IMG/VR virus record: IMGVR_UViG_3300045996_002337
Location: 175,971-239,970 of that record
Origin: a virus
Reading direction: 5' to 3' (one strand)
DNA length: 64,000 bases
How positions within the stretch are numbered: position 1 is the first letter of the stretch; each line of letters starts with the position of its first letter. The translations under genes were made by a program, and so were the position numbers. Positions 8,078 to 23,524 of the stretch are shown here, in pieces. The notes beneath the pieces were generated by a model. It ran no database searches, had not been told where the DNA came from, and worked only from the letters and a program-made list of their open reading frames with translations.

Positions 8078-8239
8078 TTACCACACACCAATCACGTGCA
8101 ACAGGACGATGCTGTTAAGCACGAGAGCGATCATCGCACACACGGTCCTGATCACCTCCATGCGGTGGCTCCAGAGCTTTTTTCGCTTTCGCTCTGAAGC
8201 CTTCTCCGCTTTTTCCTGCTCAGTCATCGCCCGTGTCAT
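8078..8239 (-). CDS. Small single-pass membrane protein, 53 aa
   Basis: MTRAMTEQEKAEKASERKRK gives a very charged N-terminus, then one transmembrane helix (TVCAMIALVLNSIVLLHVIG). The start overlaps the HNH stop (TAATG), which supports translation. Topology is probably N-in. Confidence 0.65.
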   Translation of the reverse strand: MTRAMTEQEKAEKASERKRKKLWSHRMEVIRTVCAMIALVLNSIVLLHVIGVW

Positions 8240-8832
8240 TAGTGCCCTCTTGCACGGATGTCATCCCAAACACGCGAATGTGTTGGAATAAAACCACACA
8301 GGTATTCCATCTGGCACGCGAGAACGTTTCGGTTCTCGAGAATCAGCGCTTCAGCCCAGTTCGGGGCGTACGGCACGTACAGGAGCTTCATGCCACATTC
8401 TTCCAGAAGCTGGTCATCCTTGTCATGGTTGCAGTCAAGGCACGCTGTGACAACGTTGGTCCACACGTCCTTGCCGCCGCGAGAAGTCGGGATCACGTGG
8501 TCGCGAGACAAGTGAGAATCACGGAACAGTCGGCCACAGTAAGCGCACAGCATGCGGTCACGGCGGAACAGTTCCGGGTTCGTCAGGGTCGGCGTCTTGT
8601 TCATCCGCTTTGCGGCACCTGGCGACTTTCCCTTGATAGCGATAATCGGAGCAGTTGTGATTCGCGACTGCGTGCCAGTCAAGCGGTTATCTCCACCACG
8701 GAAAAGAATGTCGCCCTCGCCTTCACCAAGCTGCCATGCAACAAGGTTCTTGGCGTGGTAAACGATTGCGTCCTGGTGGGAGCACCATTCCTTCGGTTGG
8801 CCCGAAGCGTCGAGTGTCAAAATTCTGCTCAT
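8239..8832 (-). CDS. HNH endonuclease
   Basis: 197 aa. The N-terminal half (MSRILTLDASGQPKEWCSHQ, AKNLVAWQLGEGE) and the nuclease core LCAYCGRLF ... HLSRDHVIPTSRGGKDVWTN ... ACLDCNHDKDDQ match the common bacterial HNH family of this size: two CxxC zinc pairs and an RDHVIP-GG-W-N bba-metal motif. Cuts DNA; the target is unknown. ATGA overlap with the Nudix gene. Confidence 0.85.
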   Translation of the reverse strand: MSRILTLDASGQPKEWCSHQDAIVYHAKNLVAWQLGEGEGDILFRGGDNRLTGTQSRITTAPIIAIKGKSPGAAKRMNKTPTLTNPELFRRDRMLCAYCGRLFRDSHLSRDHVIPTSRGGKDVWTNVVTACLDCNHDKDDQLLEECGMKLLYVPYAPNWAEALILENRNVLACQMEYLCGFIPTHSRVWDDIRARGH

Positions 8833-17186: not shown

Positions 17187-17999
17187 TCAACGTAATGCGT
17201 TAACCTGCTGGAGCAGGCTTTCGTGTTTCGACCCTGGTGGTAGCACTCCAAGCAGGTGCATCAAGGTCTGTGCATTATGAGGGGCGTGAGCCCTTCCATC
17301 ATTATTGAAGAAAATGTAGACTTCTTTGCCGGCTTCTGCAAGTCGACGAATCATGGCTGCATCGTTCTTCAAGTCTTGGTCTGTGTAGTTACCCCAGTAT
17401 TTACCGGAGGTTTTTGGCCCGTGTCTGCGAATGTAGACAAAATCCGCGGTGTCAGTTGGATCTGTTTCAGTGAAACGGTCTGATGCCACAAGCACTGCGT
17501 TGTGACGCTTGAGCTCGTCATACGTCTCCCGAACAAGCCAAGAGGTGTTGCGCACTTCCAGCGCAAGCTTCAAGCCGCTGGAGTTCAGAAATTCAGCAAG
17601 CGGGCCAACTCGATCAAGGAGCTTGCTGCTCGAGCGCTCTGCGAGCTGCACTAGAACTGGACCTCGTTTGTTGACATCAATCTTGTGAATGCCTTCGACG
17701 AAGTACTTCATCAGCTCAATGCCGTCTCTTGTGTCCCCGTCTGAATGCAGCTTGAGCTGACGCGAATGTGTGAATGACTTTGGCGACTTCAGGACAAGCT
17801 TGCTATTTGCATGCATCTTAGCACCCCAACGCTCAACTGAATCGGGCTTTGGGATGTTGTAGAAGGACGCGTTAATTTCCAACGTGTTGAAGTGGTCAGC
17901 GTAGTACTGGAGCAGATCACCTGTTTTCGGTGGATAAAATGCTCCATTCTGCCAATGGTGGTACGAGTACCCACTACAACCAATATAAACGTTCTTCAT
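17187..17999 (-). CDS. DUF72 family protein (YecE-like)
   Basis: 270 aa, typical length. TIM-barrel signatures: VYIGCSGYSYHHWQNGAFYP at the start, YYADHFNTLEINASFYNIPK, FVLKSPKSFTH-type block, LALEVRNTSWL, FVYIRRHGPK and VYIFFNNDGRAHAPHNAQTL (conserved N-x-x-x-A-x-A-x-N at the end). Biochemical function is unknown. Followed within 12 nt by DUF3309. CTAAATA late-like motif near 18023. Confidence 0.88.
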   Translation of the reverse strand: MKNVYIGCSGYSYHHWQNGAFYPPKTGDLLQYYADHFNTLEINASFYNIPKPDSVERWGAKMHANSKLVLKSPKSFTHSRQLKLHSDGDTRDGIELMKYFVEGIHKIDVNKRGPVLVQLAERSSSKLLDRVGPLAEFLNSSGLKLALEVRNTSWLVRETYDELKRHNAVLVASDRFTETDPTDTADFVYIRRHGPKTSGKYWGNYTDQDLKNDAAMIRRLAEAGKEVYIFFNNDGRAHAPHNAQTLMHLLGVLPPGSKHESLLQQVNALR

Positions 18000-18031: not shown

Positions 18032-18451
18032 TCACTCTTTATTAGTGAGCGCCTTTTCAACAGCCCTATCTTTTGGAATGACGGCGACACGCGGAAGACG
18101 GAGAATGAACGGCCAAATTGCAATTGCAGTTGCCACGGAGGCAATCGCGGTTGCGGCCTTCACCCAGCCCTGTAGCCAGTAAAGTGGGTACCAGATAACA
18201 GCGATATCGACGAGGTGAGTCGTGCCGCACAAGAAAATGAAGGCGCAGAAGAGCATGAACACCCAACTTGCAATGATGTCCTTGCGCTTGTCGAGGAGAA
18301 CAAGCAACGCAACGGGGATGGAATAGTAAGCAAGGGCGATCAACAGGTCCGAGAGGACCATCAGCAGAACTAGATCGCCGTTCCATTGGAAACAATAGCC
18401 ATGCGGAAGAAGGCCGTTTCTAGCGACCCAGTTGACTAGGTTATCACCCAT
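18032..18451 (-). CDS. Stand-alone ETR1-type ethylene-sensor transmembrane domain
   Basis: 139 aa, three transmembrane helices and nothing else. It matches the N-terminal domain of plant and bacterial ethylene receptors: LSDLLIALAYYSIPVALL in helix 1 (Asp35 and Tyr42/43), FCAFIFLCGTTHLVDI in helix 2 (Cys75 and His79, equivalent to the copper ligands Cys65 and His69 of ETR1) and helix 3 (WVKAATAIASVATAIAIWPF). In cellular proteins it is fused to GAF/kinase modules, which are absent here. Metal or ligand binding is inferred. A CATAAATA box lies upstream. Confidence 0.8.
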   Translation of the reverse strand: MGDNLVNWVARNGLLPHGYCFQWNGDLVLLMVLSDLLIALAYYSIPVALLVLLDKRKDIIASWVFMLFCAFIFLCGTTHLVDIAVIWYPLYWLQGWVKAATAIASVATAIAIWPFILRLPRVAVIPKDRAVEKALTNKE

Positions 18452-18481: not shown

Positions 18482-19156
18482 TTATTTATGGGGCCAGAGA
18501 AGATCAAAGTTTCCCGCCATCACCCTATCACAGGCCGCGGATCGCCCAGTTCGATGATCCTTTACAAGATTATCTTGAAAGCGGTACGTTCGAATTTTAT
18601 CGCCACGTTCGCCACTTCCAACCTGTGCCTTGCGATCAGCTGCCAGCTCCAGGAGCTGACCATTTCGGGCAACGGAATTCAGGCGCACCATTATTTCTGT
18701 TTTGGCTTCGTTCAGAGAATTTTCACGTGAGCGGCACTGCGCTGTCACAATTTCACTTGATGGAATGTGCGTGATGCGACACGAATTTTGGTGCTTGTTT
18801 CTATGCTGGCCTCCAGCACCCGTGCCAGAGTACCATTCTATCTTGAAGTCACGCTCATTGAAGGTGACTCGTTTGATCTCTCCTGGATGGATGATTGCCA
18901 CCGTGACGGTCGAGGAGTGTACCCGTCCCCGTCTCTCGGTTGGCGGTATGCGCTGAATCCGGTGTCCGCCTGGCTCGTTGTTGAGCTCTGACAGATCCTC
19001 GCCGGTTACCTCAATGCTGAGTTCGCGAGAATCAATCAGGCGGGTAGTTCAGCCGACGCGTTGCGCGTGGGCGATGTAGGCTTTAGCCAGGTCCTTCACG
19101 AACAGCTTGCTGTCCTCTCCGCCTTCGGCGGCTCGAATCTCAATAATGCGTTTCAT
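18482..19156 (-). CDS. RF1-type release factor (no domain 1) with in-frame UGA
   Basis: 225 codons from an ATG with GGAG 6 nt upstream. Codons 1-35 read MKRIIEIRAAEGGEDSKLFV...HAQRVG, codon 36 (19049-19051) is TGA, and the same frame continues through GGHRIQRIPPTERRGRVHSS (anticodon-like P-x-T motif of RF1, for UAA/UAG), GTGAGGQHRNKHQNSCRITH (catalytic GGQ) and a C-terminal IRTYRFQDNLVKDHRTG as in RF1. The UGA falls at the conserved Trp of the [GR]-W motif in class I release factors. No good start exists after the UGA that keeps the PxT motif, so a functional protein needs UGA read-through. A mutation or sequencing error is the alternative. Confidence 0.8.
18483..18490 (-). promoter_or_regulatory. 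T4-late-like octamer CATAAATA
   Basis: Within the last codons of the release factor, 32 nt upstream of the ETR1-like gene. Confidence 0.5.
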
Positions 19157-19168
19157 AACTTCTCCAAA

Positions 19169-19243
19169 TGGCGCCCCTGGCAGGAATCGAACCCACATTC
19201 ACGCTTTAGAAGAGCGGTGTATTTTCCATTATACGACAGGGGC
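19169..19243 (-). tRNA. tRNA-Arg(TCT)
   Basis: Acceptor GCCCCTG/CAGGGGC, T-loop GGTTCGATTCC, anticodon loop CTTCTAA, CCA encoded. Reads AGA. Confidence 0.88.
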
Positions 19244-19249
19244 AGAGGT

Positions 19250-19768
19250 TTATTTTAACTCGTTTTTCTTCTCTATCTCAACTATTTGTTCAAGAACTGC
19301 GGTTGGGTTTGTTTCATCTGAAAGTCCCTGTGCTTCCGTGCGGTGTTCTTGTCTAACATCTAACCGCTCAGCTATCTTGTCAAGCAGCCGGAGGATAGCT
19401 GTGCTCTCGCGTTCAGCCAGCAGGTTAATTTGCAGGTCGAGTTTGTGTCGCTTGTCTGCTTCTTCAGCTAGACGATTCTGACTCAACAAAAGGAAACCAG
19501 AAAGGAGAATGGCCTCGAGCGAGACGAGTGTCGTGAGCAGGGTAAATGGGAACGGATCAAACTGCCATACAGTCAAATTAAGGGTTGTCCAGCCAATGAA
19601 GATGGCTAGATGAACGGCGATGAAGCTGACGGTGCCAGCCCATTGTGCCACAGTATGTGCCACTTTTTCCGGGATGGATTGTTTCTTGAGCTGATCTTGC
19701 TCGTGCACAAAGATCGCCTCGATGTTCTCGTGGGTGATCTGCACTGGGTCATTAGGTGCTTCATTCAT
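19250..19768 (-). CDS. DUF1003 membrane protein
   Basis: 172 aa. Typical DUF1003 layout: a soluble N-terminus, two transmembrane helices (TVSFIAVHLAIFIGWTTLNL and the segment with LLTTLVSLEAILLSGFLLLS), then a charged coiled coil (NRLAEEADKRHKLDLQINLL). The ATG is only 5 nt after a CATAAATA box, so the message may lack a leader. Lies between tRNA genes. Confidence 0.85.
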   Translation of the reverse strand: MNEAPNDPVQITHENIEAIFVHEQDQLKKQSIPEKVAHTVAQWAGTVSFIAVHLAIFIGWTTLNLTVWQFDPFPFTLLTTLVSLEAILLSGFLLLSQNRLAEEADKRHKLDLQINLLAERESTAILRLLDKIAERLDVRQEHRTEAQGLSDETNPTAVLEQIVEIEKKNELK

Positions 19769-22930: not shown

Positions 22931-23002
22931 TGGCATCCCGTCAGAGAGTCGAACTCTGTCCATGCGTTTTGGAGACGACAGGCCCTAGCCGTAGGCCGAG
23001 AT
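22931..23002 (-). tRNA. tRNA-Trp(CCA), atypical
   Basis: Loop CTCCAAA and T-loop AGTTCGACTCT are good and CCA is encoded. The D-arm is abnormal (CCTA-CGGC-TAGG) and the anticodon stem has only 3 clear pairs. A canonical tRNA-Trp is also present at 23449. Confidence 0.65.
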
Positions 23003-23014
23003 ATTAACTTGATT

Positions 23015-23448: not shown

Positions 23449-23524
23449 TGGCTGGCCACCGCGGTCTCGAACCGCGAACCCCTGGTTTTGGAGACCAGTG
23501 CTCTGCCAATTGAGCTAGTGACCA
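23449..23524 (-). tRNA. tRNA-Trp(CCA), canonical
   Basis: Acceptor TGGTCAC/GTGGCCA, D-stem GCTC/GAGC, loop CTCCAAA, G73, CCA encoded. Confidence 0.9.

What the first reader, a model, noticed from the sequence alone, without database searches (positions are those of the whole stretch)
18482..19156. RF1-type release factor interrupted by UGA at its conserved Trp
Seen: an ATG with a good ribosome-binding site, 35 codons, TGA (19049-19051), then the rest of a domain-1-less RF1 in the same frame with PxT and GGQ motifs. The UGA replaces the conserved Trp of the [GR]-W motif. Known: RF2 autoregulates by a UGA frameshift in its own gene, and UGA-recoded phages tend to carry RF1. Inference: UGA read-through (rather than +1 frameshift) makes an RF1-like factor that spares UGA, controlled by UGA efficiency. 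Other UGA codons act as stops in this window, so it is not a global recoding here.
Basis: partly seen in the sequence, partly recalled or inferred. Interest (0 to 1): 0.9.

Follow-up and report, generated by a model that had tools for sequence, protein, structure and literature searches.

The report
Phage release factor with conserved internal stop
Many large phages, and a few bacterial genomes and plasmids, carry an extra translation-termination gene that holds a stop codon (UGA) 36 codons into itself; every relative that could be aligned at this site keeps it, followed by an RNA hairpin, so the protein is probably made only when ribosomes read through that stop, which would let the gene sense how well the cell is terminating translation.

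Summary
The window lies in a 349,660-bp phage record. Its gene at 18482-19156(-) encodes an RF1-type factor without domain 1, with TGA as codon 36 at the conserved Trp. All 121 non-redundant family members covering this codon in the aligned frame, from phages, bacterial genomes and plasmids, have TGA there; none has TGG. The hosts' ordinary prfA genes have TGG. In four phages compared (about 1.45 Mb) this is the only gene with a convincing conserved in-frame TGA, although TGA ends half of the ORFs in the window's phage. A hairpin starts about 11 nt after the UGA (window z -3.4; family mean z -2.9; compensatory changes). The base after the UGA is never U in 75 representatives. More distant members of the same clade also have internal stops: UGA in a nearby loop, a prfB-like CUU-UGA-C +1 site, possibly CUU-UAG-C. 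Best explanation: programmed UGA readthrough inserting Trp, regulating an accessory RF1-type factor by the strength of UGA (RF2) termination. Readthrough is well supported by comparison; the sensing role is inferred. No experiment exists. No earlier description found in the open-access papers searched. New variant of a known kind (RF2 recoding).

The parts
18482..19156 (-). Accessory RF1-type release factor gene (domains 2-4 only), 224 aa if the UGA is read as Trp; ends TAA
19049..19051 (-). In-frame TGA, codon 36, at the conserved Trp (G-W motif); context GGC TGA ACT
   Evidence: conserved 121/121
18985..19041 (-). Predicted RNA hairpin starting about 11 nt from the UGA; -26.4 kcal/mol, z -3.42, 0 of 200 shuffles as stable
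   Evidence: family-wide
19052..19156 (-). First 35 codons: a 35-aa peptide if termination occurs at the UGA
   Evidence: protein-like codon-position divergence
19162..19165 (-). Shine-Dalgarno-like GGAG before the ATG
18938..18946 (-). PxT (PPT) codon-recognition motif, RF1 type
18806..18814 (-). GGQ peptidyl-hydrolysis motif (GAGGQHRNKHQN)
19169..19243 (-). tRNA-Arg(TCT) ending 12 nt before the ATG; the gene lies at the end of a tRNA cluster
23449..23524 (-). Phage tRNA-Trp(CCA), ordinary 5-bp anticodon stem and G24; a possible decoder of the UGA
22931..23008 (-). Degenerate tRNA-like element with a CCA anticodon loop, missed by ARAGORN; only about 3 bp of anticodon stem; function doubtful
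   Evidence: structure read by eye

Best explanation
The gene makes an accessory, domain-1-less RF1-type release factor whose synthesis depends on programmed readthrough of its own codon 36, UGA. Most ribosomes end there and release a 35-aa peptide. A fraction reads UGA as Trp with a near-cognate tRNA-Trp (host or phage), helped by a weak stop context (not U after UGA) and a hairpin about 11 nt downstream, and goes on to the full factor. RF2 is the factor that ends translation at UGA, so output should rise when RF2 is scarce or swamped. The product, which should act at UAA and UAG, would take over UAA work, free RF2 for UGA and thereby lower its own synthesis. Shown by comparison: the conserved UGA, coding constraint on both sides, hairpin, context, uniqueness within the phage, and membership in a clade that repeatedly recodes this gene. 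Inferred: Trp insertion, the amount of readthrough, RF2 dependence, UAA/UAG specificity and the physiological role.
For: TGA at this codon in 121/121 non-redundant members, 0 TGG, while host prfA genes L168-L172 have TGG; copies in Thalassospira, Jiella, Gemmobacter, a Sphingomonas MAG, and Bosea and Rhizobium plasmids. The hosts also have separate full-length RF1 and RF2 without internal stops. Both sides diverge like coding sequence: codon-position divergence 0.29/0.20/0.57 before and 0.40/0.28/0.61 after the UGA. The only convincing conserved in-frame TGA among four phages. 75 nt after the UGA: mean z -2.89, 93% below -1; other windows -0.1 to -1.3. Stem register i+j=83: 66% paired vs 59% in column shuffles (8.8 sd) and 35-48% at other registers, with compensatory pairs such as 19-64 A-T 23, G-C 19. 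+4 base A 61, C 8, G 6, T 0 in 75 representatives, against T 66, A 57, G 33, C 31 after this phage's ordinary TGA stops. Alternative recoding in the same clade.
Against: No readthrough has been measured. The A at +4 partly follows from the amino acids used there (T, K, I). tRNA-Trp features linked to UGA reading are no commoner here than in control phages (15/21 vs 77/105). RNAalifold found no single consensus structure over all members; the covariation test covers 60 ungapped sequences and its shuffles do not correct fully for relatedness. An RF1-type factor does not by classical rules read UGA, so a direct RF2-style feedback loop is not expected and the indirect loop proposed is untested.
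Confidence: 0.72

Rival explanations
1. Direct RF2-style autoregulation: the accessory factor itself recognises UGA (or any stop) and ends its own synthesis when abundant.
For: In prfB the in-gene stop is always one its own product reads (PMC12421855); here the stop is UGA throughout; one clade member uses the exact prfB site CTT TGA C behind AGGGG and has lost the PxT motif.
Against: The main family keeps the RF1-type PxT motif and matches RF1 best in profile and fold, which predicts UAA/UAG.
Confidence: 0.15
2. A timing switch: phage suppressor-type tRNAs accumulate late in infection and read UGA, so the factor is made only late, as part of a partial code shift.
For: The gene lies among phage tRNAs (66 of 80 loci have tRNAs within 5 kb); 11 of 14 large phage records had a tRNA-Trp(CCA)-like match and two phages carry tRNAs with a UCA anticodon.
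Against: UCA tRNAs are not general; suppressor-like tRNA-Trp features are equally common in control phages; about half of this phage's ORFs end in UGA and no other gene has a convincing conserved in-frame UGA; Thalassospira and Jiella copies have no tRNA within about 6 kb.
Confidence: 0.12
3. Selenocysteine insertion at the UGA, with the hairpin as a bacterial SECIS.
For: UGA followed by a hairpin; ARAGORN labels the UCA tRNAs of two phages tRNA-SeC.
Against: Canonical RF1 has Trp here, not Cys; those tRNAs are of ordinary size (77 nt); cmscan found no SECIS family in this stretch; hairpin geometry varies between members. The tRNA-Sec model search was uninformative because it also hit ordinary tRNAs.
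Confidence: 0.03
4. Two products: a 35-aa peptide, and a C-terminal factor started anew after the UGA.
For: In Variovorax the gene is annotated as two CDS split at a UGA.
Against: 43 of 75 members have no in-frame ATG, GTG or TTG within 25 codons after the UGA, and only 5 have ATG, yet residues just after it are conserved.
Confidence: 0.04
5. Pseudogene, sequencing error or global UGA recoding.
For: A single in-frame stop is a classical pseudogene sign.
Against: 121/121 conservation, purifying-type divergence on both sides, isolates as well as metagenomes; UGA is a common true stop.
Confidence: 0.01

Closest known systems
prfB (RF2) programmed +1 frameshift (PMC12421855 and own knowledge)
   Same: A class-I release factor gene interrupted early by UGA, so that output depends on how well UGA is terminated.
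   Different: Here an RF1-type factor, zero-frame readthrough, a 3' hairpin instead of an internal SD and slippery codon, and Trp inserted at a core position. That survey found no programmed frameshift in prfA. One distant clade member does use the prfB-type site.
Bacterial RF1 (prfA)
   Same: Domains 2-4, PxT, GGQ, best profile and fold match.
   Different: No domain 1, about 30-35% identical to RF1 in the fold alignments, HRNKHQN after GGQ, internal UGA; hosts have their own prfA as well.
PrfH / RF-H (domain-1-less rescue factor beside RtcB; PMC1586002, 9mor)
   Same: No domain 1; weak similarity (41 bits).
   Different: PxT is kept, score far below the PrfH cut-off of 166.65, and no RtcB in 9 of 11 phage records.
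UGA-recoded phages carrying RF1 (described in PMC10746230)
   Same: Phage-encoded RF1-type factor, sometimes with a UCA tRNA.
   Different: No genome-wide recoding here; UGA is a common stop.
Q-beta coat protein UGA readthrough (own knowledge)
   Same: A phage gene extended by reading UGA as Trp.
   Different: There a coat-protein extension; here the regulated product is itself a termination factor.

Membership tests
Canonical RF1 (prfA) | Full length with domain 1, over the NCBIfam cut-off (400 bits or more) | tested here: not met
   187.8 bits, profile positions 107-333 of 347 only
RF1-type class-I release factor (superfamily) | PCRF and RF-1 domains, PxT and GGQ, RF1-like fold | tested here: met
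   pLDDT 82.5; RF1 on the 70S ribosome, TM 0.78-0.81
RF1-type class-I release factor (superfamily) | Releases peptide at UAA and UAG, not UGA | not testable with these tools
   needs a biochemical release assay
RF2 (prfB) with programmed +1 frameshift | SPF motif and frame change at CUU UGA C behind an SD-like sequence | tested here: not met
   PPT motif and no frame change; frameshift site met only by distant LR745208
PrfH | Over the TIGR03072 cut-off and next to rtcB | tested here: not met
   41.2 of 166.65 bits; no RtcB in this phage record
Stop-codon readthrough element | Conserved stop, coding on both sides, 3' structure | tested here: met
Stop-codon readthrough element | Measured readthrough product | not testable with these tools
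   no proteomic data or reporter
Code-4 (UGA=Trp) phage | UGA used as sense throughout, not as stop | tested here: not met
   187/373 ORFs end in TGA; one convincing conserved in-frame TGA gene
Selenoprotein | SECIS element and Sec/Cys homologues | tested here: not met
   no SECIS hit; RF1 homologues have Trp

The most novel reading that the evidence does not exclude
A clade of mobile, domain-1-less RF1-type release factors carried by large phages and by tRNA-bearing plasmids is defined by an in-gene stop codon. The format of that stop moves during evolution (UGA readthrough at Trp36, UGA in a neighbouring loop, prfB-type +1 frameshift), so the same termination-sensing control as in RF2 has been kept or reinvented in an RF1-type gene and works as a sensor of RF2 capacity.
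Probability: 0.5. Interest if true: 0.9.

Novelty: new variant of a known kind. Interest (0 to 1): 0.85.

Why it matters
RF2's frameshift has been the textbook case of a release factor sensing its own termination activity, and no counterpart was found for RF1 genes (PMC12421855). Here an RF1-type factor in over a hundred phage contigs and several bacteria seems to use a different recoding trick, with relatives that switch format. It offers a natural, very conserved bacterial UGA readthrough element to study, a testable idea for how large phages balance translation termination, and an annotation warning: such genes are now split (Variovorax), overlooked (Bosea, antisense call) or liable to be called pseudogenes.

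Tried and rejected
Suppressor-type tRNA-Trp as specific evidence: A24 or a broken 27:43 pair looked striking in these phages, but a control set of phage tRNA-Trp genes shows the same rate (77/105 vs 15/21), so dropped. A first all-frames search for other in-frame TGA genes was swamped by antisense matches and redone with best-frame filtering; its remaining sites besides this gene look like gene ends or wrong-frame matches and were judged by eye. RNAalifold over mixed geometries gave no consensus; the register test on 60 ungapped sequences worked. DNA similarity in phage records: none. A random sample of proteobacterial genomes: only the two seed genomes hit, so the gene is rare in bacteria. 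Relatives of Variovorax and LR745208 in viral contigs: none beyond a 99%-identical copy. RtcB linkage and the tRNA-Sec model (which also rings in ordinary tRNAs) gave no support for PrfH or Sec. Apparent exceptions L279 and L372 were contigs cut before this codon. The Hahella CTT TAG C case rests on one MAG and could be an error.

Full report
What is there. The window is positions 175,971-239,970 of a 349,660-bp virus record. On the minus strand, 12 nt after a tRNA-Arg gene, ATG at 19156 opens a frame that meets TGA at 19051-19049 after 35 codons and continues in the same frame to TAA at 18484-18482. Read with TGA as Trp the 224-residue protein has PCRF and RF-1 domains, best profile RF1 (187.8 bits, covering RF1 positions 107-333; RF2 104 bits, PrfH 41 bits), best solved relatives RF1, and an AlphaFold model (mean pLDDT 82.5) that matches ribosome-bound RF1 (TM about 0.8). 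It therefore corresponds to RF1 without domain 1. TGA stands where RF1 has its conserved Trp.

Conservation. The first scan of viral contigs gave 80 relatives at 62-73% identity; every one has one in-frame stop, TGA, at this codon. A scan of bacterial genomes gave about 50%-identical genes in Thalassospira, Jiella, Gemmobacter and a Sphingomonas MAG, again with TGA at the same codon, and plasmid records added Bosea and Rhizobium leguminosarum. Pooled and made non-redundant: 121 TGA, no TGG in the family; the TGG rows in that table are the bacteria's ordinary prfA genes. The bacterial genomes carry full-length RF1 and RF2 besides this gene, so it is an accessory factor. It is rare in bacteria: in two samples of 385 and 369 proteobacterial genomes only the seeds were found.

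Not a recoded genome. In four phages with the gene, TGA ends 187/373, 198/373, 208/454 and 97/345 ORFs of at least 100 aa, often overlapping the next ATG. A best-frame comparison of these four phages (about 1.45 Mb) for in-frame TGA flanked by similar protein on both sides gave this gene, in all four phages with strong scores. The other listed sites look like gene ends or wrong-frame matches (judged by eye).

Cis signals. In 75 representatives below 85% identity, the codon before is GGC or GGT in 69 and the base after TGA is A 61, C 8, G 6, T 0; ordinary TGA stops of this phage are most often followed by T (66 of 187). Part of this reflects the amino acids used (Gly before, Thr/Lys/Ile after). 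The 75 nt after the UGA fold far better than dinucleotide shuffles (mean z -2.89, 93% below -1), while other windows of the gene lie between -0.1 and -1.3. In the window the hairpin occupies 19041-18985, -26.4 kcal/mol, z -3.42, none of 200 shuffles as stable. For 60 ungapped sequences, pairing in the register i+j=83 (counted from the T of TGA) reaches 66% of cells against 59% in column shuffles (8.8 sd), other registers lie between 35 and 48%, and compensatory pairs are seen, e.g. 19-64 A-T 23, G-C 19, G-T 11; 25-58 T-A 16, C-G 13. Divergent members have hairpins of other shapes at a similar place.

Coding on both sides. Divergence by codon position is 0.29/0.20/0.57 before and 0.40/0.28/0.61 after the UGA, as for coding sequence. 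Restart after the UGA is unlikely: 43 of 75 lack any in-frame start within 25 codons.

The wider clade. More distant domain-1-less relatives also have stops near the same place. Three huge phages (LR756502, LR745206, LR756504), which are not code-4 by ORF statistics, have in-frame TGA in the loop after the Trp site; a Variovorax plasmid copy has TGA some 11 codons later and is annotated as two CDS. Phage LR745208 has CGG AGG GGT CTT TGA CCT with a +1 frame change, the layout of the prfB frameshift. A Hahella MAG has Trp but a +1 change at CTT TAG C (a single MAG). In a maximum-likelihood tree these fall together with the main family, apart from host RF1 and RF2 (96/91); deep branches inside are unresolved and some rows are long, so ancestry of the recoding is only suggested. 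L181 (LR756511), without an internal stop, falls outside.

Setting. 66 of 80 loci have tRNA genes within 5 kb; the Gemmobacter and Variovorax copies lie in arrays of 20 and 10 tRNAs, while Thalassospira and Jiella copies have none within about 6 kb. The gene thus often travels with translation parts. Suppressor-like features of phage tRNA-Trp genes are not specific to these phages.

How it most likely works. Shown by comparison: a conserved in-frame UGA with a 3' hairpin in a gene under coding constraint on both sides. Inferred: near-cognate tRNA-Trp reads it; RF2 competes; output rises when RF2 is limiting; the RF1-type product relieves UAA termination and indirectly lowers its own synthesis. 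The prfB case shows the principle that a stop in a release factor gene acts as a sensor; that survey found the in-gene stop always readable by RF2 and no programmed frameshift in prfA (PMC12421855). If the present factor is UAA/UAG-specific, as its motifs suggest, the loop is indirect; if it reads UGA, it is direct. A release assay would decide.

Prior knowledge. Searches of the open-access library for readthrough in phage release factors found nothing describing this. The huge-phage survey mentions release factors 1 and 2 without this feature in the passages read (PMC7162821). Most subscription papers and bioRxiv preprints are not in that library.

Noticed in passing
18032-18451 (-): Gene just downstream encodes an ethylene-receptor-type N-terminal membrane domain (Pfam ETR1_N, 2e-35), unusual for a phage.
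   Followed up: no
17187-17999 (-) and 19250-19768 (-): DUF72 and DUF1003 genes flank the region.
   Followed up: no
22931-23008 (-): Degenerate tRNA-like element with CCA anticodon loop and very short anticodon stem, missed by ARAGORN.
   Followed up: partly
L379:1294-1370, 1430-1506; L380:1016-1092: Ordinary-sized phage tRNAs with UCA anticodon (UGA readers) in two related phages; the one in L380 seems to have a 4-bp anticodon stem and G73.
   Followed up: partly
L361 near 8100-8500 (-), L323, L270 and others: Many viral contigs encode a short GGQHRNKHQN RF-1-domain protein without the codon-recognition domain, ArfB-like; in L361 it directly follows tRNA genes.
   Followed up: no
L387:633-707 (-): ARAGORN reports a tRNA with a four-base anticodon (tttc).
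   Followed up: no
G769:C1:149915-149952, G770:C1:113527-113564: Matches that look like the 3' part of a tmRNA in two related phages.
   Followed up: no
L183 (Bosea sp. RAC05 plasmid pBSY19_1): The release-factor locus is annotated as an antisense hypothetical protein and sits next to CRISPR-associated RAMP/Cas6 genes and a HipA toxin gene.
   Followed up: no
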